Notes: generated from the sequence alone by a model not told the origin. Counted from the stretch's first letter, positions 6,759 through 26,189 are shown. The stretch: 33,256 nt of DNA from Alphaproteobacteria bacterium (GCA_020049895.1 JAGVLE010000028.1:1-33256); one strand, 5' to 3'. Made by a program: numbers and translations.

Positions 6759-7196
6759 TCATCTTTTTTCTTCTTCTATTAATGGTTTAATCCATTGATG
6801 TAATGAACTTAATGTTGGAAAAATAGGAAATTTATTATCTTTTTGAGGGTTTTGTTGCAATGTTGCCTCTTCCCAATGTTCACATGAACGTCTCGGATGG
6901 GTAAATAAATACGAATCCCATATTGTTTCGGCGGTGTGAAACTGACTAGATGCAAATTGTTTCCATGTCTCTCTTAATTCTCTTTCTTCTTTTATATCAA
7001 TCACTTCAATGCGAGAAAAAGCATTGGAAGTATTTCCTTTCCATGCTTTTTCCATAATTTCTTTCGCCTGTACATCGGATATGGGGGCACTATAGCCAAA
7101 AATTGTTAGTAAATAACCATTATCTAAGGATCTTTCAAAAGTTTTCCATTGATTGCGGATAAAATCCTCATTGTGGTAATTTTTGTTTTTCTTTAT
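6759..7196 (-). pseudogene. C-terminal remnant of a SIR2-like/defence-type protein
   Basis: An open frame of about 145 codons with no ordinary start in its first third; the first ATG is at 7055, yet clearly protein-like sequence continues upstream (NYHNEDFIRNQWKTFERSL, then LTIFGYSAPISDVQAKEIM). Later it reads FSRIEVIDIKEERELRETW and FTHPRRSCEHWEE. The FGYSAP..D and HPRRSCE..W features are ones I associate with the C-terminal half of large proteins often annotated as hypothetical or SIR2-like; this is recollection, not a search. The frame is stopped by TAA at 7197-7199 and overlaps the 3' end of the neighbouring protease gene in another frame. The N-terminal portion is therefore probably deleted and the gene broken. 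Confidence 0.55.
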
Positions 7197-8251: not shown

Positions 8252-8410
8252 ATGAAAAAAATTCAAAGCAACCCCATGAAACATAAAAAATCAAAACCTC
8301 CTGTTAATTTAGGAAGTGCGATTGAAGCAAAAGCATCCTCCTTAACTCAAGGAATGCGAATTGGAGCAAAATCTGAAGGGTATCCCTTAAATTATTATCC
8401 AGGGAAATAA
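8252..8410 (+). CDS. Lasso peptide precursor 1 (Glu9 ring)
   Basis: A 52-residue gene with a strong ribosome site (AAAGGAG) 6-7 bases before ATG. The leader is basic (MKKIQSNPMKHKKSK) and ends ASSLTQ. The predicted core is GMRIGAKSEGYPLNYYPGK: Gly1, and Glu9 as the acceptor for the isopeptide ring, leaving a ten-residue tail with bulky Tyr/Leu residues that could act as plugs. Thr at -2 of the leader is the feature recognised by lasso B proteases. Its SLTQG junction is identical to that of precursor 2 beside the B and C genes, 3.3 kb away. It has its own terminator and is separated from B/C by an AAA+ ATPase gene. The ring size would be nine, against eight for the other five. Confidence 0.85.
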   Translation: MKKIQSNPMKHKKSKPPVNLGSAIEAKASSLTQGMRIGAKSEGYPLNYYPGK

Positions 8411-8422
8411 ATAGGTTAGTCT

Positions 8423-8475
8423 AGAGTATCTATTGGAACCCACTACAAAAAATCTTTCCAATAGATACTCTTTTT
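8423..8475 (+). terminator. Intrinsic terminator after lasso precursor 1
   Basis: A perfect 15-bp inverted repeat (AGAGTATCTATTGGA with TCCAATAGATACTCT) encloses a 19-base loop and is followed by five T residues. It lies 12 bases after the stop of precursor 1, so this precursor is probably made as its own short, abundant transcript. Confidence 0.85.
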
Positions 8476-8547
8476 AGAAAATCAGAATACCTACTCTTCT
8501 AAGATTCTCCAGTACGGTCAGAATAATCGATTCATCCAGGAACTAAG

Positions 8548-11052
8548 ATGTTAAAAAAACTATTGTTTTATAAATTTCTAACATTTGTCTGCTTGTCTGG
8601 TTCTTTATTTTCTGCTTTTGCAGGAAAAGATGCGCCGCAAAATCCTTATGCTGTCTTTGATGAACGTATATATGACCAATCCATTCTCTTTGCTAGGCGC
8701 CCTAATTTTGAATGCCTCAATGATAGGAGTTACCAACAAGCTGTCCTGCGCTACTTTACACACAAAAAAATACGCTTATTGGAAGACGATCTCTTTAGCG
8801 TTTATGATAAAGAACTAGAATATCTAAGTTATTTATCAGAAAAATATAAACCTACTCTTGCTTCAAAGGCTCTAAAAGGTGGGGGGCAGCTCTTGGCTGC
8901 TGCAGCGGGATTAAGTGTTTTAGCAATACCAGGAGTAGGAGAAGAAATCGCGGCAATGCGGATTTTTATGGCGACAGCTGCTGGTGTAAGTACTGCTGCA
9001 GCGAGTATGAGTTTAGCTCATGAGTTTTTGCAGCCTGATGGAAATTTTGATATCGATAAATTAGAAACGGCTATTCAGCAAAAAAAATCTTCTCTGATAT
9101 TAAATATCAACAAAGAATCTGGGATTTCTGATCTTGAAATAGAATATATCCTCAAAAAGCCATTTATAGACAATCGAGAGTTACAAAAAAACGTAGAAGC
9201 TATTTTTATTGCCATGCGTAAAGAAGGAGGAATTCCCTCAGAATTTCATAGAGAGTACATTGGTAATTTTTTAAAGCTACCTTTAAGAAAAAAACAAATA
9301 TCCATTGATTCTGCTTTGTTAGAGCTAGCAGGCAAAAACCCCACTCATTTTAATGCTTTGGCAGCGTCTCAACGGAGTGCAGCTGAAGAACTTCTGAACT
9401 ATGAAGAGGAAGTAAAAGTTGAAATGACACGTTTGCTGCTCCAGATAAAATATTCTTCTTATTCTAATTCTACTTCTCAACGGAAATTTTATTATTTTTT
9501 TGGAGAACCTGGCATTGGAAAAACAACAGCCGCAAAAAACATTGCCCAATTTCTACAACTTCCTCTTTTGACGCAAAGTATACGGACAGGAGCCGATCTA
9601 TCTGAAACAGCCCTGGAAGGGCAAGACTGGCTGTTGCCAGGGGCAAACACAGGGTTTCTTGCGCGCACGTTATGTACAAAGATAGACGAAGGTGAACAAC
9701 GCACAGACAAACCTACAATTACTATGCCTTTCCAAGAAGTTACACGCTATGGCTTGTCTTCAACACTCTCGGTGGAGGTGCCTGATACTATTCCTTCCAA
9801 TACGTATTGGAATGCTGTTCTCTTAATTAATGATTTTGACAGAATTTTAATGGATCCCAGCACAACAACACAGACGATTTCCTTCTTTTTGGATTACCTC
9901 GATCCCTGCAAAGAGAGCTTCTATAGCCCTTACTTTAAAGCACGTATCCCCATAAAAGATTTAATTATCGTTGTAACAGCGAATTATCCTATTCCTTCAC
10001 TTACATCAGAAGATCTAGAAAATTTAAAGAGGAACGTAGACATTCATACCCCAGAGCATTCAGCCTTAAAATATAGAATGCAATTTCAAGCCCTAAAAGA
10101 CAGGCTGGTTGAAATTCACTTTGCAACACTTGGTAATGCCGGGAAAAATATTTCCTTAAAGAAGTTTCTAGAAGAAATGTGTGAAAAATATCATCTGACT
10201 CTTACTGAACAAAGAAAAACAGCCATTTTAACCCCTGCTATACAACTTGCGTCCGTTCGAGATGCTAAAAAGCACATTGAAAAAGAGGTCTTAGATGAAA
10301 AAAGTAGTAACCTGTCAGATACAACATCTCTTTCTCAGCCAACAACTAGACCTCAGTTTACTATCTCTGAGGCCGCTAGAGCATCTCTTGCATCTTATTC
10401 TTATCTTACTCTTCCTCATCTAGATGAAGTTGATCTTCAGAAGCAAGTAAAAAACCTAGAAAAAACAAATGAATATATAAAGCTTTTTCTCTCTCCTTCT
10501 CAGGAAAAACAACATGAGGCTCTTAAAAAGCTTTTTGGAGAGAGAGGCAGCATTATCAATCCATATGCCAATATTCGAACCTTATGGAAAACAGCGTGGG
10601 AGAGAAAGAAAGTATTTAAAGAAGAAGCTGGAGGAATTCAAGCGCTTGCCAATAGGCTTAAGTATTTTGATGCCCCTCAGTCAAAAGGAAAAATCATCCG
10701 CTTTCATATTCAAGCAGCACAAGTCTTATTACATGCTCTCTTAAAACGTGCAGAAGATGCAGATCCATTTGTCTGGCAGGCGCTCATTACAAATGACCAG
10801 CGTATGGCTAACCTCCGCTTATTTTTAACCCATCTAACCCATTTAAGTAACTTGCAAACTGGATTAGATCAACTTACCCAATCAACCATACGATTTACTC
10901 AAGGCATTCAAGAATTTTTAGCGGAAAGCAACAGGATAATTAACAGTGACAAACAAAGACTAGAAGACTTAATGCGCAATCCCGCAGCAAATAATGGTGA
11001 CAATGTTGAAATGGGAGAGCTCAATCCTCTTATGGGGGAAGACAATGCCTGA
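8548..11052 (+). CDS. Exported AAA+ ATPase-like protein
   Basis: An 834-residue protein with a clear signal peptide (KKLLFYKFLTFVCLSGSLFS, then AFA|GK near residue 26). A hydrophobic Ala/Gly-rich stretch at about 110-155 could be membrane-inserted. An AAA+ core follows: FFGEPGIGKTT (Walker A, about 317-327), AVLLINDFDRIL (Walker B-like, about 422-433, with Asn-Asp where Asp-Glu is usual) and LIIVVTANYPIP (sensor 1, about 470-481). The C-terminal 300 residues are helical and charged. ATPases have no ATP in a periplasm; export would make sense for a bacterium living in host cytoplasm, or if the domain faces inward. Whether it relates to the lasso peptides or is independent cargo is unknown. It ends at a strong terminator. 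Confidence 0.75.
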   Translation: MLKKLLFYKFLTFVCLSGSLFSAFAGKDAPQNPYAVFDERIYDQSILFARRPNFECLNDRSYQQAVLRYFTHKKIRLLEDDLFSVYDKELEYLSYLSEKYKPTLASKALKGGGQLLAAAAGLSVLAIPGVGEEIAAMRIFMATAAGVSTAAASMSLAHEFLQPDGNFDIDKLETAIQQKKSSLILNINKESGISDLEIEYILKKPFIDNRELQKNVEAIFIAMRKEGGIPSEFHREYIGNFLKLPLRKKQISIDSALLELAGKNPTHFNALAASQRSAAEELLNYEEEVKVEMTRLLLQIKYSSYSNSTSQRKFYYFFGEPGIGKTTAAKNIAQFLQLPLLTQSIRTGADLSETALEGQDWLLPGANTGFLARTLCTKIDEGEQRTDKPTITMPFQEVTRYGLSSTLSVEVPDTIPSNTYWNAVLLINDFDRILMDPSTTTQTISFFLDYLDPCKESFYSPYFKARIPIKDLIIVVTANYPIPSLTSEDLENLKRNVDIHTPEHSALKYRMQFQALKDRLVEIHFATLGNAGKNISLKKFLEEMCEKYHLTLTEQRKTAILTPAIQLASVRDAKKHIEKEVLDEKSSNLSDTTSLSQPTTRPQFTISEAARASLASYSYLTLPHLDEVDLQKQVKNLEKTNEYIKLFLSPSQEKQHEALKKLFGERGSIINPYANIRTLWKTAWERKKVFKEEAGGIQALANRLKYFDAPQSKGKIIRFHIQAAQVLLHALLKRAEDADPFVWQALITNDQRMANLRLFLTHLTHLSNLQTGLDQLTQSTIRFTQGIQEFLAESNRIINSDKQRLEDLMRNPAANNGDNVEMGELNPLMGEDNA

Positions 11053-11059
11053 TACTATA

Positions 11060-11085
11060 AGCTATGAAGATTCATAGCTCTTTTT
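11060..11085 (+). terminator. Intrinsic terminator after the AAA+ gene
   Basis: A perfect 9-bp stem (AGCTATGAA with TTCATAGCT) with a two-base GA centre (the stem tip must open to form the loop) is followed by C and five T residues, 8 bases after the stop codon. Confidence 0.85.
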
Positions 11086-11277
11086 CTAACAACAAACTGT
11101 GTATGCGTTCATCAGAAAGGAAAACTTTATCAGAAAGGTTGCATGATTTATTTCTCTAGAAACCGATTTTGAAAAAGCGTAGAGTAATAAAATATTGCGC
11201 GTGAACTTTGCACAGAAGAGAGCTTTGTATTTTTTTAAAATTTTGATCATTTCCATGAAAGAAAGAGAACATTTATT

Positions 11278-11553
11278 GTGAATAAAATTTTTCAAGCACT
11301 CCTCTGTCTCACTCTTTTAACTCTGTTCGGATTTCAAGAAGCAAAGGGCATGGAAGAGAAAGACGATAAAAAAGGTGGTGTCATGCAGATTCTTAGCAAG
11401 ATGGGGAAGGCATTAGGTGAGTTTAGAGCAGAAAGTGCTACTGTATTGGGAGTGACCCTTAAAAGAAAATCAGAATCTTCTTCCGTAGCTGCGTCTTCGG
11501 ACAATCCCTCGGCAATTGAATTTGGAAAGAACGCAAAACATACCTTAATATAG
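11278..11553 (+). CDS. Small secreted protein of unknown function
   Basis: A 91-residue protein starting at GTG (11278). The N-terminus is a plausible signal peptide (KIFQALLCLTLLTLFGFQ, ending near EAKG at residue 24). The mature part is short, charged and Ser-rich (KRKSESSSVAASS) without recognisable domains. It lies between the AAA+ gene and precursor 2. It does not show a lasso core, because no Gly with an acidic residue 7-9 positions later follows a Thr-x junction. A weak GAAAGAGAA sequence about 12 bases upstream could be the ribosome site. Function not recognised. Confidence 0.5.
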   Translation: MNKIFQALLCLTLLTLFGFQEAKGMEEKDDKKGGVMQILSKMGKALGEFRAESATVLGVTLKRKSESSSVAASSDNPSAIEFGKNAKHTLI

Positions 11554-11690
11554 GAACTGCTATTGTTGGAGGTTGTTATGTGTGTGGTGAACTTATAAAA
11601 TGTTATTGTGGGTGCAGATAGAGAATATTGTAAAAATCTGTAATTTTGGTGTGTTGAGGTTGAAAATTTTCTAACAAAAAAGGAAAAAGC

Positions 11691-11873
11691 ATGCGTAAAA
11701 ATATATTTAAAAAAGCATTTTTTGTGAATAAAAACACCATCTTTACAAAAAACACCTCGGTAAAAGAAATATTCACAAAAGGATATAGGTTATCTGAAAA
11801 GGCGCACAGCTTAACGCAAGGAAGCGGAGGGAGGGGCTACGAAGATTATAGTGCGGCCATTCGCTTTAAATAG
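11691..11873 (+). CDS. Lasso peptide precursor 2
   Basis: A 60-residue precursor immediately before the B gene (5 bases between stop and start). The leader is basic and ends KAHSLTQ. The predicted core is GSGGRGYEDYSAAIRFK: Gly1, Glu8 as ring acceptor (Asp9 is an alternative), and a nine-residue tail ending with Arg, Phe and Lys. Thr at -2 is present. The ribosome site is AAAAAAGGAAAAAGC before ATG. The order A-B-C is that of proteobacterial lasso operons, making this the cognate precursor of the cluster. Confidence 0.92.
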   Translation: MRKNIFKKAFFVNKNTIFTKNTSVKEIFTKGYRLSEKAHSLTQGSGGRGYEDYSAAIRFK

Positions 11874-11878
11874 CCCAT

Positions 11879-12583
11879 ATGCCCTATCATTTAACAGACC
11901 ATATTTATATCACGCAATTTCAGGATGAGCTTATCCTTCTGGATTTAAAGCAAGATAAATATACGGTCTGCTTTAAAGAATTTGCGGATTTAGTATTACA
12001 ACTTTTGGAAGGAAAGGTGACAGATCCTTCAGAAGATACAGCTATTCAAACTCTCCTCGATGATCGAATCGTGGAAGAGAAAGAAAATATATACCCCTTC
12101 TACATTGATAAGAAGAGTACATCTGAAGGTGTGGCAAACGTAGATTGGCGTTTGCCTCTGGAAAACGTGCGTGTTCCTTTTGATTTAGAAGTTGTAAAGG
12201 CTTTTTTAGTCCTTCTCAAAGTCAATTTTTATATTAAATTTCGAGGATTCTATTCCGGGATTCAATCCATAAAGAATGCGTATAACCCTACAAACTCATA
12301 CACTCTCCCAACACAAAAAGAGTTGCGAAAACTTGCTAACATCGTTAACAAAGCCTGTTTGATTTATCCTACACGAACCAAATGCTTGGAATGGGCTATG
12401 ACGTTTGTGTTGTTAGCCTTAAAACGGAAATGGAAATGCAATCTTGAAATTGGTGTTCAAAATTATCCTTTTATGGCTCATGCATGGATTGAATGTAATG
12501 GTCACGTGGTGATGGATGAAGATGTGTTACGAGACGAGCTTGCGATTATTCTCAGTGAACCCTTTAGAAAAATAAAAGCATGA
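11879..12583 (+). CDS. Lasso peptide B protein: RRE fused to transglutaminase-like leader peptidase
   Basis: A 234-residue protein that binds the precursor leader and cuts it off. Residues 1-65 have the PqqD-like RiPP recognition element pattern (YITQFQDELILLDLKQDKYTV then a helix FADLVLQLLEG). Residues about 105-225 match the transglutaminase-like lasso protease: Cys169 in TRTKCLEWA, His201 in FMAHAWIE and Asp213 in VVMDED form the expected Cys-His-Asp triad. Fused B proteins are usual in Proteobacteria, while Gram-positive clusters split B1 and B2. The start follows the precursor stop by 5 bases with no strong ribosome site, suggesting coupled translation. Its stop overlaps the C gene start (ATGA). 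Confidence 0.92.
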   Translation: MPYHLTDHIYITQFQDELILLDLKQDKYTVCFKEFADLVLQLLEGKVTDPSEDTAIQTLLDDRIVEEKENIYPFYIDKKSTSEGVANVDWRLPLENVRVPFDLEVVKAFLVLLKVNFYIKFRGFYSGIQSIKNAYNPTNSYTLPTQKELRKLANIVNKACLIYPTRTKCLEWAMTFVLLALKRKWKCNLEIGVQNYPFMAHAWIECNGHVVMDEDVLRDELAIILSEPFRKIKA

Positions 12584-14358
12584 TTTACGCTGGTCTCATT
12601 CACTTTAACGACACACCTAGCATTGCTGACAAGCTATGTCCCGTCCTCACGGACTATAGTGAAACACCTCCGGTTTTTCTTCAAAAAAAATCTATGGCTT
12701 TTTGCTATGCGAAATTATCTGATCTGCAAGACAAGGATGAGGTTTTGGAAAATGAAACGTCTCTTATGCTTGGACGTGTTTTTGACAACACCACCGCAAC
12801 GTCTTTGCGGAAAAAAGATTTTGAGAATTTATCTTTTACATCTCCAAAAGAGATCTTTAAATCCTTATGGGGAAAATATGTCTATATTCGTTCTGTAACA
12901 GGTTACTTTGAAATAATTGTCGATCCGACAGGACAGCTTCCTTTTTTTTACTATGTTTTCCCAAATGGGAATGTCCTGTTCGCTTCAGACATAGAAATTA
13001 TTTTTAAAATCTTAGAGCGCACACCCCAGTATAATTGGAGTTATTTATGTTCTTATCTTGTTTATGGAAATAGTTCTGCGATACAGACTCCTTTTGAAGA
13101 AATTTATGAGCTTCCTCCAGCCTGCTCTTTAAAGATCACAAAGAATGACAGAGTAACGGAGCCCTTCTGGAACCCTTTGGACGCTTGTTCTTCCACTTCT
13201 CCAGAAAACACAAATGCTGTTAATGTATTGCAATCCGTACTCAAGCCCTGGATTGAGCCCTATACAAACATCTGTGTGAGCCTTTCTGGGGGGCTTGATT
13301 CTTCTTCCCTTGTCTATTGTCTTAAGGACATCCTAAAAAAAGATCAAAAACTCATTGCTGTGAATTATTTTCATTCTAAAGTTAAATCAAGTAATGAGCT
13401 TGTTCATGCACGAAAGGTTTGCCAAGAAACAGGAATAGACCTCATTGAAGCTGATGCCTCTTCGTGCCTTCCTTTTGATTCTTCTACCCACAAAAGGTCA
13501 TTGCTTCCCAACAAACCTTATCCTGGGTTGATGAGCCTCAAGTGGATAGAAACCGTCTCTGAGTGTCTTCCTTCTGATAAAGCCTGTACGTTCCTGAGTG
13601 GCCATGGAAGCGATCATATTTTTATGCGTCCTCCTGCAAAACAAACGATCTCAGACTACATTATTGATAAAGGGTTCCGAGGAGTTCCTTTGAAAGACAT
13701 AACCGCCTTTTACAGAGACTCTTTGTTTCCTATCTTAAAAGAGAATATCACAGCTTTAGGAGGGTATATCTTGGGATGGCGTCGTGATAAACGGCATCCT
13801 AAAAATGTGAGCGATGAGCGTCCTGACTGGATAAAAAAAGAGCTAGGAGAGAAAGCGTCTGTTAATTTTATCCACCCCATCTATAGGACATTGCTACCTA
13901 AAATCCTTCCTGGGAAATATGCTCAAATAGATGCCTTCTACGAAGGTCTCGCGTCTATCCACATGGAAGCAAATCCGATCCTTCCTACCTATTATCCATA
14001 TCTTTATAAACCAGTTGTAGATTTTGCCTTCTCATTTCCAACATATGATCTCTTTAAGGAAGGACATGATCGTTATCCCCTTCGCAAGTCTGTTAGTGAT
14101 CACTTCAATACTCAGACGGTATGGAGACGCGACAAAAGCCAAACAACAGGCATTCTGCAATTAGGAATGAAAAAGAATCTGGATTTCATTTTGACTCTTT
14201 GTGGAGAAGGAAAATTTGTAAAACAAGGCCTTATTGATAAGGAGGGGATGCAAGAAACCATCAACCTGATCAGTAATGGAGATATAAACTATATGTGGCC
14301 ATTTACACATCTTGCATCCGCTGAGCTTTTTCTGGATGCTTGGAAAAAGAAGTTTTAA
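12580..14358 (+). CDS. Lasso peptide C protein: asparagine-synthetase-like macrocyclase
   Basis: A 592-residue homologue of class B asparagine synthetase that would activate the Glu side chain of the core with ATP and close the isopeptide ring on Gly1. The N-terminal domain begins MIYAGLIHF and lacks the Cys2 nucleophile of glutamine amidotransferases, as in the known cyclase McjC. The synthetase domain carries the pyrophosphate-loop SGGLDSS at 236-242, and FLSGHGSDHIF near 338-348. TYYPYLYKPVVDFAF and VWRRDKSQTTG near the end are typical of the family. It overlaps the B gene by four bases. It must handle six different cores if all precursors are served by this one enzyme. Confidence 0.92.
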   Translation: MIYAGLIHFNDTPSIADKLCPVLTDYSETPPVFLQKKSMAFCYAKLSDLQDKDEVLENETSLMLGRVFDNTTATSLRKKDFENLSFTSPKEIFKSLWGKYVYIRSVTGYFEIIVDPTGQLPFFYYVFPNGNVLFASDIEIIFKILERTPQYNWSYLCSYLVYGNSSAIQTPFEEIYELPPACSLKITKNDRVTEPFWNPLDACSSTSPENTNAVNVLQSVLKPWIEPYTNICVSLSGGLDSSSLVYCLKDILKKDQKLIAVNYFHSKVKSSNELVHARKVCQETGIDLIEADASSCLPFDSSTHKRSLLPNKPYPGLMSLKWIETVSECLPSDKACTFLSGHGSDHIFMRPPAKQTISDYIIDKGFRGVPLKDITAFYRDSLFPILKENITALGGYILGWRRDKRHPKNVSDERPDWIKKELGEKASVNFIHPIYRTLLPKILPGKYAQIDAFYEGLASIHMEANPILPTYYPYLYKPVVDFAFSFPTYDLFKEGHDRYPLRKSVSDHFNTQTVWRRDKSQTTGILQLGMKKNLDFILTLCGEGKFVKQGLIDKEGMQETINLISNGDINYMWPFTHLASAELFLDAWKKKF

Positions 14359-14363
14359 TTTGC

Positions 14364-14497
14364 ATGGCTATACAAGAAAACAGAGCCTTGCCGACACTAA
14401 CAGTAGGAGACAAGTATTCCATCTGAAACGCTATGGCAAGATTACCGGCCTTATCTGCTCTGTATCCGATGAGGCTAATATCAACAAAAAAGGATAA
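14364..14497 (+). pseudogene. Possible frameshifted small gene between cyclase and precursor 3
   Basis: From ATG 14364 a frame reads MAIQENRALPTLTVGDKYSI and stops. In the neighbouring frame, starting where the first ends, the DNA reads LKRYGKITGLICSVSDEANI and then NKKG, stop at 14497. Joined by a single-base shift near 14422 this gives a roughly 45-residue protein with a GD.YSI..RYG.ITG..CSVSD pattern, like a small beta-barrel. It might also be chance. No function is proposed. Confidence 0.25.
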
Positions 14498-14502
14498 ATG
14501 TT

Positions 14503-14673
14503 ATGGTTAAAAAATTTCTTCAGAAGTCATCGATGTTTGGCCTAAAGTCTAAAGCTAAACAAAGAAAAAAATCTTCGACATTTCAATCCATGAGTAATAA
14601 AGCAAGCCGTCTGACGCGCGGGTGGAGCGGACGGAATTCCGAAGGAGCATGCATAACAGATCGTTATGAGTAA
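14503..14673 (+). CDS. Lasso peptide precursor 3
   Basis: A 56-residue precursor with a basic leader (MVKKFLQKSSMFGLKSKAKQ) ending NKASRLTR. The predicted core is GWSGRNSEGACITDRYE: Gly1, Glu8 as ring acceptor, Thr at -2, and a tail holding one Cys, an Arg-Tyr pair and a C-terminal Glu. AAAAGGAT lies shortly upstream of ATG 14503. The leader closely resembles that of precursor 5 (M.KFLQKS..F.LK.K.KQ..KKS), so the two are recent duplicates whose cores have diverged. It starts 144 bases after the cyclase gene, on the same strand. Confidence 0.9.
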   Translation: MVKKFLQKSSMFGLKSKAKQRKKSSTFQSMSNKASRLTRGWSGRNSEGACITDRYE

Positions 14674-14722
14674 CTGTACGCACCTAATTGGTAAAGACAG
14701 GCTGTAATAATTGTTGGGCAGG

Positions 14723-14744
14723 CTGAAGGGCTTGCCCACTTCAT
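14723..14744 (+). other. Weak hairpin between precursors 3 and 4
   Basis: GGGCAGGC followed by GGCTTGCCC can fold into an imperfect GC-rich hairpin. There is no T tract. It could stabilise or attenuate the precursor 3 transcript. Confidence 0.3.
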
Positions 14745-14792
14745 CTACTCTCTATGTGACTAAAATAATATTAATAGGAAAGGAAAAATATT

Positions 14793-14981
14793 ATGTATAA
14801 AAAACTTCTTCAGGCATCAACTAGACTGTTTTCTCTAGAACTGCATAAACCATCTCAAAACACAGAGAAGTCGCTAGGAAAAGTTGAGTTTAAAGCTTCT
14901 TGGATGACTTGTGGAGGACGGGGTTGTAATTCAGAAAGTTTTATGACATTGCCGACTTATCAACCTTCAAAACCAAGATAG
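14793..14981 (+). CDS. Lasso peptide precursor 4
   Basis: A 62-residue precursor with AGGAAAGGA before the ATG. The leader (MYKKLLQASTRLFSLELHKP onward) ends ASWMTC, with Thr at -2 and an unusual Cys at -1. The predicted 22-residue core runs from Gly41 to Arg62 and begins GGRGCNSESFMT: Gly1 and Glu8 ring acceptor, Cys5 inside the ring, and a tail rich in Pro, Tyr and Lys ending KPR. Cys at -1 and Cys5 make it the most unusual of the six. The leader differs from 3 and 5 but keeps the short basic start. Confidence 0.87.
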   Translation: MYKKLLQASTRLFSLELHKPSQNTEKSLGKVEFKASWMTCGGRGCNSESFMTLPTYQPSKPR

Positions 14982-15013
14982 TGAGAAGATTGGTCTGAGT
15001 AAATCCTAGAGTG

Positions 15014-15040
15014 GGATTCTCCCCATCCAAGAGAGAATCC
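15014..15040 (+). other. Hairpin between precursors 4 and 5
   Basis: A perfect 8-bp stem (GGATTCTC with GAGAATCC) with an 11-base loop lies 33 bases after precursor 4. The flanking TTCTCCT is only partly T-rich, so this may be a transcript-processing or attenuation hairpin rather than a full terminator. Confidence 0.4.
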
Positions 15041-15126
15041 TTCTCCTGCAACGTCTTGCTAAAGAAACAATTCACCTCATTTAATCTCTATCTGATGGGG
15101 ATGACATTAAAAAGAAAGGAAAAACT

Positions 15127-15303
15127 ATGAAAAAATTTCTTCAGAAATCAGTATTATTTGACTTAAAATTCAAACCTAAACAGAATAAGAAATCTCGGAT
15201 AGGCTACTTTATGCAGGACAAGCGAAACACGGCAAGTCGCATAACCCGTGGAGGTGGGGGGAGATGGTATGAAGGTATCCCGCCTTCCCCGTGCCGTGAC
15301 TAA
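15127..15303 (+). CDS. Lasso peptide precursor 5
   Basis: A 58-residue precursor, with AGAAAGGAAAA before ATG 15127. The leader (MKKFLQKSVLFDLKFKPKQN onward) ends NTASRITR. The predicted core is GGGGRWYEGIPPSPCRD: Gly1, Glu8 ring acceptor, Thr at -2, Trp6-Tyr7 in the ring, and a proline-rich tail ending Cys-Arg-Asp. It is the last plus-strand gene before the convergent ABC exporter. The four leading glycines allow some doubt about the exact first residue, but Glu8 fits only if the first Gly after TR is residue 1. Confidence 0.9.
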   Translation: MKKFLQKSVLFDLKFKPKQNKKSRIGYFMQDKRNTASRITRGGGGRWYEGIPPSPCRD

Positions 15304-15374
15304 TGAGTACATCTAGGTACTGCAGGAACTCGTATGCAAATCTCTTGGTATTGTGATGGGACCCCTTGTGATAT

Positions 15375-15409
15375 GTGATTGCTCCACGAGGCTTGCCTCG
15401 TGGCATCAC
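15375..15409. terminator. Strong hairpin between convergent precursor 5 and ABC exporter genes
   Basis: A perfect 9-bp stem (CCACGAGGC with GCCTCGTGG) sits inside outer GTGAT/ATCAC arms. It lies between two converging transcripts and is symmetric, so it could act on both. There is no clear T tract on either side, so intrinsic termination is uncertain. Confidence 0.45.
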
Positions 15410-15497
15410 AGTCAACTTACAGGCCTCGGACAAGCTGCGCGTATCATTATGATATAAGCGATAAAAGCACTAGTGCGTAAATGGTCCAGGGGTGCAT

Positions 15498-17207
15498 TCA
15501 TTGCAATATTCCTGCATGATGCTTAATCTCTATCACCTGATCCACCTTATTTTTAGGAAAAGGGCGATGAGTAATAATGATTTTTGTCATATGCGGGAGG
15601 AATTTTTCAATATTTCCTTCAATCACGTTCTCTGTATCCTTGTCTAAGGAAGAGGTACTTTCATCAAAAATACACACTTGTGGTTTTTTTAGGAAAATCC
15701 GTGCAATTGAAAGCCGTTGTTTTTCTCCCCCTGACAGTTTTAACCCTCGGTTCCCAACTGTTGTCTCAAGACCTTGAGGGAGTTTATTGATAAACTCCAA
15801 AAGATGAGCCTGCTTTAAAGCCTCATTAATTTCTTGAGGGGTTGCCTCAGGATACACAAAAGTGAGGTTGTTTCTGATGGTGTCATTCAATAAATAAGTT
15901 TCTTGAGGAACCCAGCCGATTGCCTTTGGGAGTGATTCTAGAGATATCTGCTTTAAGTTGATGTCATTAATAAAAATGTTTCCTTCTATAGGATCAAATA
16001 GTCTGAGAAGAAGCTTTGCTATGGTCGATTTCCCTGCTCCTGTAGGACCTATAATGACTGCTGTTTGTCCAGCCTCAAGCGCGAAAGAAACTTCTTTCAA
16101 AATAAATCTATCTTTATATTTAAAGGAGACATTTTCAAATCTAATAGAAGAAACTGTCTTTGGTAAATGAAGAGGATGAGAGGCCTCAATAAGTTCTGGA
16201 GGTGTAAGGAGCACATCAATCACTCCCTTCATATCAAGGATCGTTTTTTTGATGTCTTGAAAGACTTGCCCTAAGATGGCAATGGGCATCACGAATTGTA
16301 AGATATACCCGTTGAAAAGGATGAAGTCTCCAGCAGTAAGAGATCCTTGCAATACGCCTTGACCCACAAGATACATAAACACAGAAAGACCTATCCCTAA
16401 AATCACAGATTGTCCTATGTAGGAAAGGGCGATATTGCGCATAAACTTAACTTCTGTGGTTTCTCGCTTTTTTAATTCTGTTGTGCAGGTTGAGATGGCC
16501 ACGTCAGCTTTTCCAAAAACCTTCACCGCCTCATAGTTTGACAACCAATCTGCAATGATTCCATCTGCATCTTTATCAGCCTCATTAGCCTGCTCGCGCG
16601 CTTTTAGAGCTACTCTCAAGGCGATAAGAGTATACACAAAGAAAACTCCAAAAATGACTACCATTAAAAGGCTGTAAACAAAGGGATAAAGAGAAGAAAT
16701 AAGAATAATGACAAATAAGAATTCCAGGAGGATGGGGAGAACGTGAAAAAATAGATCTAGTACAATGCGAGGGACGTTCTGTTGAGCTCTTCGGATAATA
16801 TTTGTAAGAGCACCTGGCTGTTGATTCACAAAGTAATTCAACGAAAGGCCAAAAACATGAGAGAGAATTTTTGACCCTAATACACGGGTAAGGCGCTGCT
16901 CAATTTTATAAATCAATATGGTGCGTACGTGAACAGAGATTTGGCTCATCATCCAAATAAAACCATAGCTGATAAGGATAACGGTCACTAACAAAGGATT
17001 AGAAAGAGAGAAAGAGTCGACAATCTTTTTCAAGAAAAGCGGTAAGGCTAGGTTCGATAAGACTCCTACGACTAACACAACCAAAGAGAGCCAGAAGCTT
17101 AAAGTGAGTTTTTTATCGGCAAACGTTGTAACAAGGATGTCTTTAATGCATTTCCAATACTGCTTATAATTAACATTCTCCATCACAATGGCTTTTGCTA
17201 TTAGCAT
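15498..17207 (-). CDS. ABC exporter (half transporter), probable lasso D protein
   Basis: A 569-residue half transporter: about six membrane segments in residues 30-320, then a nucleotide-binding domain with IIGPTGAGKST (Walker A), LSGGEKQRLSIAR (signature) and VCIFDESTSSLD (Walker B). McjD-like exporters of this design pump out lasso peptides and give self-immunity. By sequence it also resembles Atm1-type exporters, so the assignment rests on its place: it directly follows a lasso precursor gene on the same strand and faces the B/C operon. No strong ribosome site precedes ATG 17207; Met9 (17183) is an alternative. In an intracellular bacterium the product would go to the envelope or the host cytosol. 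Confidence 0.8.
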   Translation of the reverse strand: MLIAKAIVMENVNYKQYWKCIKDILVTTFADKKLTLSFWLSLVVLVVGVLSNLALPLFLKKIVDSFSLSNPLLVTVILISYGFIWMMSQISVHVRTILIYKIEQRLTRVLGSKILSHVFGLSLNYFVNQQPGALTNIIRRAQQNVPRIVLDLFFHVLPILLEFLFVIILISSLYPFVYSLLMVVIFGVFFVYTLIALRVALKAREQANEADKDADGIIADWLSNYEAVKVFGKADVAISTCTTELKKRETTEVKFMRNIALSYIGQSVILGIGLSVFMYLVGQGVLQGSLTAGDFILFNGYILQFVMPIAILGQVFQDIKKTILDMKGVIDVLLTPPELIEASHPLHLPKTVSSIRFENVSFKYKDRFILKEVSFALEAGQTAVIIGPTGAGKSTIAKLLLRLFDPIEGNIFINDINLKQISLESLPKAIGWVPQETYLLNDTIRNNLTFVYPEATPQEINEALKQAHLLEFINKLPQGLETTVGNRGLKLSGGEKQRLSIARIFLKKPQVCIFDESTSSLDKDTENVIEGNIEKFLPHMTKIIITHRPFPKNKVDQVIEIKHHAGILQ

Positions 17208-17295
17208 CTAAAAAATCCGAGAGGGTTTCTGTGTATCCGTTGTTTATACTCCCCTCCCCCTTCGTTCATCTTCTTTGCCTTTTCACATAGCCAAG

Positions 17296-17322
17296 GGCAG
17301 AAATTTTTGAGGTTTCTACCCC
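17296..17322 (-). other. Hairpin between precursor 6 and the ABC exporter
   Basis: On the minus strand GGGTAGAAA and TTTCTGCCC form a 9-pair stem with one wobble, around a 9-base loop. A hairpin placed between precursor and processing/export genes often sets the high precursor-to-enzyme ratio in such operons. That function is inferred. Confidence 0.4.
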
Positions 17323-17330
17323 TGAATGAC

Positions 17331-17510
17331 CTACGGCATCCTTTTAGTAAACCTAGTGGGATCCTCAGTTGTTCCTCCCACAATGCCTCGTGTAAGAATT
17401 GAAGCACGCCCAGATAGGGCTGCTAGGGATTGATAGTTTTGGCTCATCGACTTGTCAACTTTTTTGTAAAGGCCTGTCCAGCTTAATGTTTTAAGAAGTG
17501 TTTTTTGCAT
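17331..17510 (-). CDS. Lasso peptide precursor 6, linked to the exporter
   Basis: A 59-residue gene on the minus strand with AGAGGA 4-9 bases before its ATG. The leader begins MQKTLLKTLSWTGLYKKVDK and ends GRASILTR. The predicted core is GIVGGTTEDPTRFTKRMP: Gly1, Glu8 as ring acceptor (Asp9 alternative), Thr at -2, and a nine-residue tail with Arg-Phe and Lys-Arg pairs. The LTRG junction is the same as in precursor 3 and nearly that of 5 (ITRG). It is transcribed towards the ABC exporter, 123 bases upstream of it, and away from traA, which ends at 17600. It supports both the exporter's role and a multi-product cluster. Confidence 0.88.
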   Translation of the reverse strand: MQKTLLKTLSWTGLYKKVDKSMSQNYQSLAALSGRASILTRGIVGGTTEDPTRFTKRMP

Positions 17511-17599: not shown

Positions 17600-20500
17600 T
17601 TAAAAATCTAAACCCCTCCCTGTCTCATGAATATATTCTACCCCCCGTTCTTCTTGTTTAAAACGCTGTTCAATCTCCTTAACCAACTGTTGATTATGCT
17701 CCTTAAGTTCCTGGAAAATGTCCGTATGTTTTTCCAAGATGGTCATGTAATGATGCAGTTCATCTTTGGCCTTATGGGCAAGACGGGTACCGGCATATGT
17801 CGTAATCGTATGGAGTTTGCTTTGAATGTAGTCTGTGATCTCCGCAAGATTGTTATTGCCCACGAAATCAAAGGTAGGTGGTGCAAGATCTCGTTGGAGC
17901 CCTGTTGATTGACTCTGGATGCTTCCTTGTCTTTTAGATTCGTCCCGCCAGAGGGAAGGACGTTTATTGTTGGTAAGGTTTCTTTCCTCTTGCTGAAATT
18001 GATGTAGCTCGTGAGGTAATGGGGTCTTTGAGGATGTATCCCGCCAAAATCCTTTATACCCTTTCTGAGTTTTCTGTAGTTCTGGAGGTGAAAATTCATT
18101 TGCACAAATATCTCTCCAAAACCCTTTGTACCCCTTCTGTGGTAAGATTTTTTCTGCCCGTTTTTCTTCTCGAATGCTGTGGGATAATATCGGAAGTTCC
18201 GTAACCCTCGAATTCCCCATGAACTGATCCACTACGTGCTGGAAAGCTTTCTTTGAAACGGCGCCCATAGCGTGAAGCTCATCAGAAAGCCGTCCAAACA
18301 ATTTATTGAGAAGTTTTTCATCTTCCACCATCCTCTCCATAAGTGTGGAGGCATCCATGTAATCGGTTGCTGCAAGTTTTTCTCCTGATCTGGAGAGCAT
18401 TTCAGGAAGGATTTCAGGTTTTTTAAAATCCAATGAACTTCCATACACTTGAACATCGTCTCTATGTCGAGTCATGGCCACATAGGTCAGATTTTTGGTC
18501 ATGTTTGGAGAAGCTAAGACATAAGACTTGTCAATAGTTGTGCCTTGAGATTTATGAATCGTCACTGCCCAGCCATGGTCAAAGAATGGATATAATTTTG
18601 GTGCAAAAGATACGTCCCTACCCTCCTCCAGACGCACCTGTATCTTCTGTTGGTTAAGATTGAGGATTGTTCCTATCGTTCCATTTTTAACTCCTAATCC
18701 ATAATTGTTGCGGATAAAAACAATCCGATCACCTTTAGAAAAGTGTTTGTCTTCAGAGATTGTCTTCTGTTCACCAAAATCATCTTCTGTCTGTTTCTTG
18801 ATTGTGTAGAGGAATTCTTGCTTTTCAAGATAATTTGAGGCTTTTAGAAGGAAACGAGCCTCCTTATTAAGGTCGCTGACGTCACGATTGGTAAAGGTGA
18901 GCATCAAAGTGGATTTCTGGGAATTAGACTTAAACTCTGAATGCCAAGCTTTTAGAAGAGCCTGTTTAGTATCATGGCGTTGATCATAGATTCCCTGTTC
19001 GGGAGAGGAAATATTCTCCTGGATAATATGCACATGTCCTTTGTCCATATATCGTTGAACGGCTTCTTGGGTCTGTTGTTTTCCAAACAAAACCGTAGCC
19101 TCCCGCTGCCAAGTTTCTTGTTGACGAACAACAGTGGTCAGCTCTCTCTTCCCAATACGGTCTGTCAACAATCGAAAGGCAGGGCCCGCTTCCACAGGCT
19201 GAAGTTGCGCTCCATCCCCCATGACCACCAGTTTGGTCCCTAGCTGTTGTACAGCTGTAAGAAGCTTGGAAAAGCGCTCCAAATCCACCATTCCAGCTTC
19301 ATCTACTATAAGGACGCTTTTGGCATTATAGCGATAGCGACCTGATTCAAATTCCTTCAAGAATTTGTGGATGGTCATGGATATAATCTCAGATTGGGCT
19401 AAATTTTGAGCTGCCTTGCCCGTTGGCGCTAGGCCATAGACCTTGTAATCATTGGCTGCCCAGATATTCTTACATGTCTTCAAAAGAGTTGTCTTTCCTG
19501 ACCCTGCAATGCCAAACACACAAGCAAGCTGCTCTGGCCCTACCATATGGTTGAGCGCTGTCAGTTGTTCGTCAGAAAATCTGTTTTTTAACTCCTCATC
19601 TACAAAGTGAGATTGATGGGATTTTTTAGAAGCAAGCGTTTCTGCAAGCTCCACAAGATTAAGCTCGGCTTTTAGCAAACTTTTCGTTGTATAAATGGCG
19701 TTATCGTCTTTTTTCAACGTCACAAGTTCAGAAGAATTCCGTAGTCGTGCTTCCATCCTCTGAAAAAGAGGAAGCTCATCAATATAACGATGAAGCACCT
19801 TCTGTACATCGGCCCACATAAAGGTAGCATGGTGCTTGCTGACAATATCGAGCACCACCTCAGGGCGCCTTAAAATCCGGTAAATATTTCGAAATTGAAT
19901 ATTCTGAAAGGCTTGTTGTTTTTCTGTAAAAGGACCAGTATTTCCTTCAATTGCCTTGAGCCGTTTCTCCTGCTCAATCACATTTTTCCCGCGTTTGGGT
20001 TGGGGCTCCATCTCAATGCCCCGCTCATAGTAAGAACGATGATCAATCTGAACATCATGCCCATGCAGTTTAAGATGAAAATTAGAATAGGAAGCCCACT
20101 GCTCTCGTAATTCCGACAAGAGCTCTTTTTTATTCCAGTTTCTCTCCTTTTTTACACTTAAGCCTATTTCCGTGAGCGTGCGCGTTAAGGCTAAAACATG
20201 GCAATGGGGTTTGTAGTCTCCTGTTGTTTGATCCACATCAAAATGAAAATTCAACTGTGACGCCATTCCGCGACCACACAGCTGTTCTTCAACAAATTCT
20301 CTGGCAAGAGCTATATTCTGTTCATCCGTCAATTCTCGATGGAGGGCAAGTTCAAATTCTCGCCAGACACGGGCATTGATTTTTGTTTCAGAAGCTTCTG
20401 CAATCATGCATAAAGCCTGAACCCCAATTTCTCGATTCTGGGCCATGACTTGTTGAATCTCAACACTCCAGGCCGGAGCATTTTTTGGCAAGAGAAGCTC

Positions 20501-20647
20501 GATATGCTCAACAGCCTTATGCGTGTAATTAAAGACTTCCCCCGTTCTCATATCTTCAAGCTTACAGCCTGCACGATAGGCAACAGCGCCAACCGTATTT
20601 CTGGTACTACGGGATAGAGATTTCGTGGTGAAGTGGTACAAGGCCAT
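17600..20647 (-). CDS. traA: Ti-type conjugative relaxase-helicase TraA (MobQ family)
   Basis: A 1015-residue relaxase that nicks oriT and unwinds the transferred strand. It begins MALYHFTTKSLSRS..., the standard TraA/MobA start, followed by AVAYRAG. Metal-binding histidines are in FHFD and KPHCHVLAL (about 145-152). The helicase has GIAGSGKTT (about 378-386), LIVDEAGM (about 446), MGDGAQLQPVEAG, and TIHKSQGTT (about 697) with TYVAMTRHRDD. I chose the ATG at 20647, with GAGGAG upstream, over an upstream TTG (20791), because the extra 48 codons are not protein-like and cover the candidate oriT. The C-terminal region holds repeated KGYKGFWRD segments. It diverges from traC/traD as in Ti plasmids. 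Confidence 0.93.
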   Translation of the reverse strand: MALYHFTTKSLSRSTRNTVGAVAYRAGCKLEDMRTGEVFNYTHKAVEHIELLLPKNAPAWSVEIQQVMAQNREIGVQALCMIAEASETKINARVWREFELALHRELTDEQNIALAREFVEEQLCGRGMASQLNFHFDVDQTTGDYKPHCHVLALTRTLTEIGLSVKKERNWNKKELLSELREQWASYSNFHLKLHGHDVQIDHRSYYERGIEMEPQPKRGKNVIEQEKRLKAIEGNTGPFTEKQQAFQNIQFRNIYRILRRPEVVLDIVSKHHATFMWADVQKVLHRYIDELPLFQRMEARLRNSSELVTLKKDDNAIYTTKSLLKAELNLVELAETLASKKSHQSHFVDEELKNRFSDEQLTALNHMVGPEQLACVFGIAGSGKTTLLKTCKNIWAANDYKVYGLAPTGKAAQNLAQSEIISMTIHKFLKEFESGRYRYNAKSVLIVDEAGMVDLERFSKLLTAVQQLGTKLVVMGDGAQLQPVEAGPAFRLLTDRIGKRELTTVVRQQETWQREATVLFGKQQTQEAVQRYMDKGHVHIIQENISSPEQGIYDQRHDTKQALLKAWHSEFKSNSQKSTLMLTFTNRDVSDLNKEARFLLKASNYLEKQEFLYTIKKQTEDDFGEQKTISEDKHFSKGDRIVFIRNNYGLGVKNGTIGTILNLNQQKIQVRLEEGRDVSFAPKLYPFFDHGWAVTIHKSQGTTIDKSYVLASPNMTKNLTYVAMTRHRDDVQVYGSSLDFKKPEILPEMLSRSGEKLAATDYMDASTLMERMVEDEKLLNKLFGRLSDELHAMGAVSKKAFQHVVDQFMGNSRVTELPILSHSIREEKRAEKILPQKGYKGFWRDICANEFSPPELQKTQKGYKGFWRDTSSKTPLPHELHQFQQEERNLTNNKRPSLWRDESKRQGSIQSQSTGLQRDLAPPTFDFVGNNNLAEITDYIQSKLHTITTYAGTRLAHKAKDELHHYMTILEKHTDIFQELKEHNQQLVKEIEQRFKQEERGVEYIHETGRGLDF

Positions 20648-20721
20648 TTCGAGAGGGTTCTCCTCAAGTTGAAATTCATCAGGACCTCTCGTTTTATCTG
20701 GGGTGCTTGCACCAAAGCGCT

Positions 20722-20752
20722 CAAAGGTTTCACCTTTGTGTAAGCGCGCTTC
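20722..20752 (+). other. Candidate origin of transfer (oriT) with nick-like motif
   Basis: A perfect 7-bp inverted repeat CAAAGGT-TTC-ACCTTTG (20722-20738) is followed at once by TGTAAGCGCGCTTC (20739-20752). MobQ-family origins carry a hairpin followed by a nick core like TAAGTGCGCCCT; here TAAGCGCGC matches eight of the first nine positions. It lies between the divergent traA and traC genes, where Ti plasmids have oriT. The match is by eye from remembered consensus. Confidence 0.45.
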
Positions 20753-20881
20753 GAAAACTTTTACAAAGTTCACGAAGACAGGTTTATTCAATTTAACACG
20801 TTATTTATATTCAGGGTTGTTTGTCTTTGTTGTGTGTTGTTTGTCACGTTAACTTCTCAGTTAAAATAATAAAAAAAATGA

Positions 20882-24156: not shown

Positions 24157-25323
24157 CTAAGCCTCTTTCTTTGTAAGTGTCGTCACCTTGGCTCCAAATA
24201 GCTCTGTAGCATGCCTTAAGGGTGCATCGGCTAAATGAGCATAACGTTGTGTGGTAGAAGCTTGTGTATGGCCTAAGAGTTTTCCTACAATACTTAAACT
24301 TAATCCACTGGAAACGAGATGAGAAGCATGAGTGTGGCGGAGGTCATGGAGATGAACATCTACGAGGCCTGCTCGTTTACTAATGGTGGCCCATGCCTTT
24401 TTTATGTCTGTTAAAGGCCTTCCTGAAACCTTTCCGGGGAAAAGATAGGTGTCTTGAGCTGTTTCCTGCATCTCTTGTAAAATGTTTAAAGCAGCCAGTG
24501 ATAAAGGAAGATGTTCCATCTTTTTTTGTTTTGTAGAATGCGCTGGTTTAGTCCACACGCCTTTTTCAAGATCAAATTGATCCCAAGTGGCTCCTAAGAC
24601 TTCATTTCTCCGAGACCCCGTGAGAAGGAGAAGTCGAATAGCATTTGCAACATCTTGGTTATGATAGATATCCAAGACAACATAAAGCTGTTGAACCTCC
24701 TGATCACTGAGCCACCGTGTTCGCTTGTGTTCTTGATATTTTATCACTCCTTCCACTGGATTAGAGCTAATCCATTTCCATTGAAGGGCAAGACCAAACA
24801 TTTTGTTTAGCAAGGCGCGTGCACGATTAGCTATATAAGGTGTTCCCTGAAGTCCATGATGAAGGAGTTGGACATCACGCATGGTAACCTCTTCTACTTT
24901 TTTTGATTCCCATTGTTTGAGGATAATTTTATCCAACATACGCTCATCTTCTTTATAGCTTTTGGGACGTTTGTTGATTTTGGCGTGAAACTCTAGGTAA
25001 TCATTGGCTAGCTTCGCCATGGTTGGCTTAGTTTTAAGATTTTGCTTTTCTTTTGAAGGGTCCATTCCTTTAGCAACTTCGCCTAAAAGCTTTTTGGCCT
25101 CTTCACGAGCAAGGTCTGCCGTAATAAGTCCATGAACTCCTATTTTCTTGCGACGTGTATGGCTGAATTCATTCCGATATTGAACAAAATAAGTTCTACG
25201 CCCAGTTGGAAAAATCCGAACTCCAAAACCTTTGAGTTCCAAGTCCCACAATAATATTTCCCCCTTCTGAGGAGGAAGGACGCTTTCAATGATTCTCTTA
25301 GTCAGTCTTTTAGCCGTCTGCAT
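24157..25323 (-). CDS. int: Tyrosine integrase, P4 type
   Basis: A 388-residue site-specific recombinase. It starts with the P4-type N-terminal domain (LTKRIIESVLPPQKGEILLW, LKGFGVRIFPTGRRTYFVQY) that binds arm-type sites. A SAM-like core-binding domain follows, then the catalytic domain with Arg in LLLTGSRRNEVLG (about 231), HLHDLRHTHASHL (about 325-328), LLGHTQAST (about 350) and RYAHL, whose Tyr (about 360) is the nucleophile. It lies 200 bases from the tRNA-Lys 3' half and points inward, which fits integration at a tRNA gene. P4-type integrases commonly use tRNA 3' ends. The short tail after the catalytic Tyr (ATELFGAKVTTLT) resembles that of the relic at 25874. Confidence 0.95.
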   Translation of the reverse strand: MQTAKRLTKRIIESVLPPQKGEILLWDLELKGFGVRIFPTGRRTYFVQYRNEFSHTRRKKIGVHGLITADLAREEAKKLLGEVAKGMDPSKEKQNLKTKPTMAKLANDYLEFHAKINKRPKSYKEDERMLDKIILKQWESKKVEEVTMRDVQLLHHGLQGTPYIANRARALLNKMFGLALQWKWISSNPVEGVIKYQEHKRTRWLSDQEVQQLYVVLDIYHNQDVANAIRLLLLTGSRRNEVLGATWDQFDLEKGVWTKPAHSTKQKKMEHLPLSLAALNILQEMQETAQDTYLFPGKVSGRPLTDIKKAWATISKRAGLVDVHLHDLRHTHASHLVSSGLSLSIVGKLLGHTQASTTQRYAHLADAPLRHATELFGAKVTTLTKKEA

Positions 25324-26029: not shown

Positions 26030-26189
26030 TGAATACAAGATGCTCCTTCTCTGTTCACACACGATCTGCCTACAGCTCTTAATTTTTTTCTAACAATTTA
26101 GATACTGACGTGCTTTAATCTTGAGGATGTTTTTATAGGTAATTGTTTACAAAAGAATTCTTGATCTAGAAACATTGGAAGGATATTTT

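What the first reader, a model, noticed from the sequence alone, without database searches (positions are those of the whole stretch)
8252..17510. Six-precursor lasso peptide locus served by one B and one C enzyme
Six small genes (8252, 11691, 14503, 14793, 15127 on plus; 17510 on minus) share a basic leader, Thr at -2, core Gly1 and Glu at 8 or 9, around a fused RRE-protease B protein and an Asn-synthetase-like cyclase. Most known clusters have one to three precursors. Core sequences are all different (for example GSGGRGYEDYSAAIRFK, GIVGGTTEDPTRFTKRMP), so this would be a small combinatorial family from one enzyme set.
Basis: partly seen in the sequence, partly recalled or inferred. Interest (0 to 1): 0.95.

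Follow-up and report, generated by a model that had tools for sequence, protein, structure and literature searches.

The report
Six-precursor lasso peptide locus
A bacterium related to symbionts that live inside amoebae carries, on a mobile DNA element, one pair of enzymes and six different small genes that together should make six different knotted (lasso) peptides, which is twice the number in well-studied cases and a natural example of one toolkit making many products.

Summary
All six small ORFs exist at the stated coordinates. A profile built only from precursors of other genomes recovers all six among 350 small window ORFs (57 to 13.5 bits; next ORF 4.2). The genome has no seventh. B is a fused RRE plus transglutaminase-like lasso protease: NCBIfam lasso B2, E 7e-26, and an AlphaFold model whose first 70 residues match leader-bound lasso B1 crystal structures best. 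C is a lasso-type asparagine-synthetase cyclase with an intact ATP motif but no glutaminase cysteine, although it scores below NCBI's curated cut-off. An ABC exporter completes the set.

The locus is cargo between tra genes of a conjugative element. Close homologs of the B/C set occur in Paracaedibacter, Odyssella and Holosporales-like MAGs and in two chlamydial-phylum genomes, with one to five precursors each. Leaders are conserved; cores differ as much within a locus as between loci.

Lasso clusters in amoeba symbionts, and clusters with two or three precursors, are already published. New here: six precursors for one B/C set, the leader-conserved, core-hypervariable pattern, signs of a mosaic locus, and a lasso-linked exported AAA+ protein. 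No product has been shown.

The parts
8252..8410 (+). lasso precursor A1; core GMRIGAKSEGYPLNYYPGK, predicted 9-residue ring (Glu9)
   Evidence: relatives-only whole-precursor HMM 15.4 bits, motif HMM 15.2 bits; genome profile E 6e-11
8548..11052 (+). large AAA+ ATPase with an N-terminal signal-like stretch; homologs mostly beside lasso clusters; role unknown
   Evidence: Pfam AAA E 1e-6; family profile matches Lon AAA+ domains E 2e-13; neighbour of lasso D in L030, L031, L036
11691..11873 (+). lasso precursor A2; core GSGGRGYEDYSAAIRFK, ring Glu8; 5 bases upstream of B
   Evidence: relatives-only HMM 13.5 bits, motif HMM 15.6 bits; genome profile E 9e-16
11879..12583 (+). B: fused RRE (about 1-70) plus transglutaminase-like leader protease (about 100-230); Cys169, His201, Asp213 invariant in 15 relatives
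   Evidence: NF033537 lasso_biosyn_B2 E 6.8e-26; Transglut_core3 E 7.6e-24; AlphaFold pLDDT 86, RRE best matches 6jx3, 5v1v, 5v1u
12580..14358 (+). C: asparagine-synthetase-like lasso cyclase; SLSGGLDSS and GHGSDHIF conserved, no Cys2 for a glutaminase
   Evidence: NF033535 E 2.5e-23 (below cut-off), Asn_synthase E 1.9e-16
14503..14673 (+). lasso precursor A3; core GWSGRNSEGACITDRYE, ring Glu8
   Evidence: relatives-only HMM 57.1 bits; core 69% identical to one in L026 (GSGGRTSEGDITDRYD)
14793..14981 (+). lasso precursor A4; core GGRGCNSESFMTLPTYQPSKPR, ring Glu8; unusual Cys at -1
   Evidence: relatives-only whole-precursor HMM 28.4 bits but only 3.1 bits on the short motif; 5' end 87% identical to L026 precursors over 53 bases
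15127..15303 (+). lasso precursor A5; core GGGGRWYEGIPPSPCRD, ring Glu8
   Evidence: relatives-only HMM 55.6 bits
15498..17207 (-). D: ABC exporter; inverted relative to all relatives; 79-80% identical to D of L026/L027 while C is 63%
   Evidence: Pfam ABC_membrane and ABC_tran; tblastn synteny; pairwise identities
17331..17510 (-). lasso precursor A6; core GIVGGTTEDPTRFTKRMP, ring Glu8; upstream of D on the same strand
   Evidence: relatives-only HMM 23.8 bits, motif HMM 12.8 bits
109..6094 (+). conjugation genes traH, traG, traD on the left of the cargo
   Evidence: Pfam TraH E 1.7e-95, TraG_N E 8.5e-92, TrwB_AAD_bind E 7e-131
17600..20791 (-). TraA-type relaxase-helicase on the right of the cargo
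   Evidence: Pfam MobA_MobL E 4e-44, AAA_30 E 3e-51
24157..25323 (-). tyrosine integrase of the element
   Evidence: Pfam Phage_integrase E 8e-30

Best explanation
This is a lasso peptide (RiPP) biosynthetic locus with six precursor genes and one set of maturation and export proteins, carried as cargo of a conjugative element in a Holosporales-like alphaproteobacterium. The RRE domain of B binds the leaders, the Cys-His-Asp domain of B cuts after the residue that follows Thr(-2), and C activates Glu8 or Glu9 with ATP and joins it to the new Gly1 amine, making six cores into threaded 8- or 9-residue-ring lassos; D exports them. The set of six arose by duplication of precursor genes with conserved 5' ends, leaders and maturation signals while the cores diverged, and probably by joining parts of two related clusters. 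Shown by computation: the gene set, families, catalytic residues, leader and core pattern, genomic context, distribution. Inferred: binding, cleavage, cyclisation, threading, export, and that all six are expressed and processed. The likely role, a panel of peptides against competing bacteria or for host interaction inside a protist, is a guess.
For: Six precursors recovered by relatives-only profiles, no others in the genome. B: lasso B2 family E 7e-26, RRE fold closest to leader-bound lasso B1 structures, invariant C169/H201/D213. C: lasso cyclase family E 2.5e-23, SLSGGLDSS invariant, no Cys2. D exporter beside the set in all 14 loci where the neighbouring DNA is held. Precursors A2-B-C-A3-A4-A5 on one strand with gaps of -4 to 145 bases. 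In 31 of 31 within-locus paralog pairs the leader is more alike than the core, and core identity within a locus (25-64%) centres near the between-locus mean of 30%. A-6, T-2, G1 invariant in 33 precursors, E8 in 26 and E9 in 7. Element genes traH, traG, traD, relaxase, integrase flank it.
Against: C is far under the curated cut-off of the lasso cyclase model, so family membership by that test fails though it is the top match. None of the six leaders has the [Y/W]xxP motif that discrete lasso RREs bind (PMC13381572), so which leader part B's RRE binds is unknown. A4 has Cys at -1 and fails the short motif scan. A1 and A2 have leaders unlike A3-A6, so one B may not serve all equally. No transcript, peptide or activity data. 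Gene counts in relatives are lower bounds because many contigs are short.
Confidence: 0.86

Rival explanations
1. It is a lasso locus, but only some precursors are live substrates; the rest are decaying or orphan copies left by mosaic assembly of the locus from two clusters, so the true product number is two to four.
For: D is 80% identical to L026/L027 D while C is 63% and B 59-63%; DNA of the A3 and A4 5' regions is 80-87% identical to L026 precursors while B-C DNA is 68%; D is inverted only here. Leaders of A1 and A2 differ from A3-A6. A4 has an odd -1 Cys.
Against: All six keep open frames, a ribosome-binding-like stretch, A-6, T-2, G1 and E8/9; the core of A3 is 69% alike to one in another genome, a sign of selection. 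Decaying frames of this size would be expected to lose such residues.
Confidence: 0.25
2. The enzymes make linear or branched-cyclic (unthreaded) peptides rather than true lassos, since the fold of the product cannot be read from sequence.
For: C is divergent (about 23% identical to plasmid-borne relatives in Sphingopyxis), under the lasso model's cut-off; several cores have very Gly-rich rings and few bulky plugs.
Against: The B plus C plus D plus T(-2)/G1/E8 set is the defining lasso set and B matches lasso B proteins specifically.
Confidence: 0.08
3. The six small ORFs are chance frames and only one or two are precursors.
For: Short ORFs are common: 350 of 25-140 aa in the window.
Against: Relatives-only profile separates all six (13.5 bits or more) from every other window ORF (4.2 or less) and shuffles stay under 11.4 on the motif.
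Confidence: 0.01

Closest known systems
Lasso peptide cluster of the amoeba symbionts Amoebophilus asiaticus, Paracaedibacter symbiosus and Odyssella thessalonicensis (PMC8831229; first noted by Schmitz-Esser 2010 as cited there)
   Same: Homologous B, C and D; P. symbiosus (L030) and O. thessalonicensis (L033, L037) loci were re-found here at 48-58% C identity, with the same kind of precursor. In A. asiaticus the cluster was upregulated late in the infection cycle (paper).
   Different: I find one or two precursors in the two alphaproteobacterial ones and six here; D inverted here; here it is cargo of a tra element with a relaxase beside it. Number of precursors in A. asiaticus not tested.
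Caulosegnins I-III (Caulobacter segnis), caulonodins, xanthomonins, astexins 2 and 3: characterised clusters with two or three precursors (PMC13352647, PMC7549694)
   Same: Several precursors with different cores matured by one enzyme set; rings of 8 or 9 residues in caulosegnins.
   Different: Two or three precursors rather than six; different hosts; precursors here lie on both strands and both sides of BCD.
Lasso B1/RRE proteins with bound leader (PDB 6jx3, 5v1v, 5v1u)
   Same: RRE fold of the first 70 residues of B (Z 6.8 to 7.8, rmsd 2.6 to 3.3 A).
   Different: Those are separate B1 proteins; here RRE and protease are one chain, as in the fused E-B clusters described in PMC7549694.

Membership tests
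lasso peptide biosynthetic cluster | B leader protease of the transglutaminase-like lasso B2 family with Cys-His-Asp | tested here: met
   NF033537 91.2 bits over cut-off 33; C169, H201, D213 invariant in 15 sequences
lasso peptide biosynthetic cluster | RRE domain for leader recognition, alone or fused to B | tested here: met
   AlphaFold model (pLDDT 86), residues 1-69 best matched by lasso B1 structures 6jx3, 5v1v, 5v1u at Z 7.8-6.8. Pfam's PqqD model was not hit.
lasso peptide biosynthetic cluster | C, asparagine-synthetase homolog with ATP site and without glutaminase Cys | tested here: met
   Asn_synthase E 1.9e-16; SLSGGLDSS kept; sequence starts MIYAG/MIYLG with no Cys2
lasso peptide biosynthetic cluster | C reaches the curated score of the NCBIfam lasso cyclase model | tested here: not met
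   82.5 bits against a cut-off of 525, although it is the best-scoring family; the model is of type 'exception' and narrow
lasso peptide biosynthetic cluster | precursor with Thr at -2, Gly (or similar) at 1, Asp/Glu at 7-9 | tested here: met
   all six: T-2, G1, E8 or E9
lasso peptide biosynthetic cluster | [Y/W]xxP RRE-binding motif in leader (discrete-RRE clusters) | tested here: not met
   no YxxP or WxxP in the six leaders, read; the motif is described for discrete RREs (PMC13381572), and B here is fused
lasso peptide biosynthetic cluster | threaded product, core mass minus one water | not testable with these tools
   needs expression and mass spectrometry; predicted masses
conjugative element cargo | flanked by transfer genes, relaxase and integrase | tested here: met
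   traH, traG, traD at left; MobA/MobL relaxase-helicase and tyrosine integrase at right
conjugative element cargo | attachment sites and an intact transferable element | not tested
   left end lies outside the window; no tRNA in the window

The most novel reading that the evidence does not exclude
Lasso peptides of protist endosymbionts are a mobile, rapidly diversifying repertoire: precursor genes with conserved 5' ends and leaders are duplicated and reshuffled between conjugative-element-borne clusters while cores turn over, one promiscuous fused B and one C process them all, and an exported AAA+ protein found mainly beside these clusters takes part in the export, threading state or action of the peptides in the host cell.
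Probability: 0.25. Interest if true: 0.75.

Novelty: new variant of a known kind. Interest (0 to 1): 0.52.

Why it matters
Six natural precursors for one enzyme pair would be a ready-made test of how much core variety a lasso B/C pair accepts, which is the central question for using these enzymes to build peptide libraries. It also makes a question about amoeba symbionts testable: related clusters are expressed late in infection in Amoebophilus (PMC8831229) and nobody knows what the peptides do. Core turnover with fixed leaders on a mobile element would suggest an arms race with competitors or hosts.

Tried and rejected
Chance ORFs: rejected by relatives-only profiles and shuffles. A seventh precursor elsewhere in the genome: none. 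A second asparagine-synthase match on contig C33 is a weak 19.7-bit hit under the cut-off and carries no lasso genes in the 11 kb fetched. The LuxR-NB-ARC-TPR protein upstream of several related clusters as a dedicated regulator: weakened, because the family has many copies per genome in most of the genomes searched; the window has none beside it. Structure of the AAA+ protein: model too poor (pLDDT 49) to search with. Promoter scan: no more hits than shuffles. Sequence search of B in the PDB: no match, fold comparison needed. 16S search in the assembly: none held, so the organism is placed only by relatives. Plasmid collection: only distant C homologs at 20-29%. Papers giving the largest precursor number per lasso cluster: not found in the open library; so 'record' is not claimed.

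Full report
Observation. To test whether they are more than chance without training on them, I built profiles only from precursors of other genomes. A 15-residue motif profile finds five of the six at 12.8 to 17.5 bits, with a maximum of 11.4 in 14,000 shuffled ORFs; the sixth (14793, Cys at -1) scores 3.1. A whole-precursor profile finds all six, at 57.1, 55.6, 28.4, 23.8, 15.4 and 13.5 bits, with the next of the 350 window ORFs at 4.2. The precursor alignment A1 (33 sequences, the window's six included) finds just these six in the 1.18 Mb assembly. In a sample of 385 genomes of the class, only four genomes have any match, all carrying loci seen here.

Enzymes. B (11879-12583) matches NCBIfam lasso B2 well over its cut-off and Pfam Transglut_core3. 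In 15 relatives, Cys169, His201 and Asp213 are invariant, the spacing expected of the lasso leader protease triad (my knowledge of McjB). The N-terminal 100 residues hit no Pfam model, so I predicted the structure from 15 sequences (pLDDT 86). Its first 70 residues match the lasso B1 proteins 6jx3, 5v1v and 5v1u, all solved with bound leaders, as the three best chains at Z 7.8 to 6.8; the C-terminal part matches papain-like and transglutaminase-like folds at lower Z. The tool warns that Z under 8 can be a common arrangement, but the three top rows are all lasso B1 proteins and cover the domain. C (12580-14358) has the lasso cyclase as best NCBIfam match but far below the curated cut-off; the ATP motif SLSGGLDSS and GHGSDHIF are conserved and there is no Cys at position 2. 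D (15498-17207, minus) is an ABC exporter.

Relatives. One scan of bacterial genomes with C gave 14 loci at 48-62% identity: Paracaedibacter symbiosus, two loci in Odyssella thessalonicensis, Holosporales or Alphaproteobacteria MAGs, one Parachlamydiales MAG and one labelled Verrucomicrobia that falls in the same phylum as it in the genome collection. Only three of 234 genomes of that phylum have a related C, so transfer between phyla is likely (inference). B, C and D lie together in all loci where the neighbouring DNA is held. Precursor numbers per locus are 1 to 5 outside the window: L025 3, L026 3, L031 3, L030, L033 and L036 2, and L029 5 with two B/C sets. The window has six with one set. 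Counts elsewhere are lower bounds, as several contigs are short.

Anatomy of precursors. In 33 precursors A-6, T-2 and G1 never vary, S-5 is nearly fixed, and Gly4 is usual; the ring acid is always Glu, at 8 in 26 and at 9 in 7. Within a locus the leader is more alike than the core in 31 of 31 pairs; core identity within loci centres near the 30% found between loci, while leaders are 44-96% alike. Mean DNA identity follows the same pattern in every group. So the leader is held and the core turns over. A few cores are kept across genomes (A3 and one in L026, 69%; L037 and L038, 85%).

Origin of the six. D is 79-80% identical to D of L026 and L027, while C is 63% and B 59-63%; for most locus pairs C and D differ by under 10 points. 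The DNA just upstream of A3 and A4 and the start of their leaders is 76-87% identical to the three L026 precursors, against 68% for B-C. D with A6 is inverted here, whereas D follows C on the same strand in the relatives. The D tree puts the window with L026 (97/92), the C tree leaves it unresolved on a long branch. I read this as a locus joined from two related clusters, which would help explain the high precursor number. Faster evolution of B-C after a change of substrates is not excluded.

Context. TraH, TraG and TraD lie to the left and a MobA/MobL relaxase-helicase, a YhcG-type nuclease and a tyrosine integrase to the right, so the cluster is cargo of a conjugative element. L028 has a relaxase 60% identical to this one just beyond its lasso genes. 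G+C is 38.6% for the cluster, 43.3% to the left and 40.1% to the right.

AAA+ protein. The gene at 8548-11052, between A1 and A2, encodes an 834-aa protein with a signal-like N-terminus and an AAA+ domain closest to Lon in the PDB. Homologs are found in few genomes; five of eight copies lie within about 6 kb of lasso genes, directly after D in three loci. This association is too strong for chance if lasso loci cover about 1-2% of each genome (rough estimate, not a formal test). Its role is unknown.

Comparison with what is known. Lasso clusters in Amoebophilus, Paracaedibacter and Odyssella were reported, with late-infection upregulation in Amoebophilus (PMC8831229). Clusters with two or three precursors are well characterised (PMC7549694, PMC13352647), and that lasso clusters can encode several precursors with divergent cores is stated in PMC13381572. 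The 2025 Holosporales review does not mention lasso peptides. I found no paper reporting six precursors for one lasso enzyme pair, but the library is incomplete. The locus therefore is a lasso cluster by every feature tested except the narrow score of one C model and the YxxP motif of discrete RREs, and it is a variant in number, arrangement and setting rather than a new kind.

What is shown and what is not. Shown by computation: gene set, families, conserved residues, distribution, leader and core pattern, context. Not shown: expression, processing of each core, threading, export, activity and target.

Noticed in passing
window 8548-11052; homologs L078 12547-15516, L076 93-1103, L036 8686-10920, L075 2799-5546, L074 6148-8919, L077 6521-9982: Family of large AAA+ proteins with signal-like N-termini found mainly beside lasso clusters of these symbionts, Lon-like AAA+ domain by profile; function unknown.
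   Followed up: partly
L078 4148-7504, L076 6834-10175, L036 265-3585, L033 5031-8489, L037 888-4340, L074 2231-5614, L077 11792-15139: LuxR-HTH, NB-ARC, TPR proteins of about 1,100 aa lie divergently upstream of several related lasso clusters or next to the AAA+ gene; the family is greatly expanded (many copies in most of these genomes) but the window's genome has only one, on contig C4.
   Followed up: partly
L032 and L035: Closely related lasso B and C genes (53-62% identical) in two genomes of the chlamydial phylum, with a much more distant transporter (38%), suggesting transfer between phyla and exchange of the exporter.
   Followed up: partly
L042 (G009 contig 117), 10222-10755 minus: A lasso cluster with B truncated at its N-terminus and no recognisable precursor nearby: B match starts at residue 56, the RRE region is missing.
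   Followed up: no
window 11278-11553: Small protein with a signal-like N-terminus between the AAA+ gene and A2, no family match and no homolog at the related loci.
   Followed up: no
window 7168-7887 and 6027-6689, minus strand: A trypsin-like peptidase-domain protein (below Pfam's cut-off) and a DUF7689 protein share the cargo region between traD and the lasso genes.
   Followed up: no
window 22774-23850, minus strand: YhcG-type PDDEXK nuclease (DUF1016) beside the integrase of the conjugative element.
   Followed up: no
window 26175-27752: Fusion of a phosphomethylpyrimidine kinase with a TenA/PqqC-like domain, with no start of its own beyond an N-terminal hydrophobic stretch that looks like a signal peptide.
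   Followed up: no
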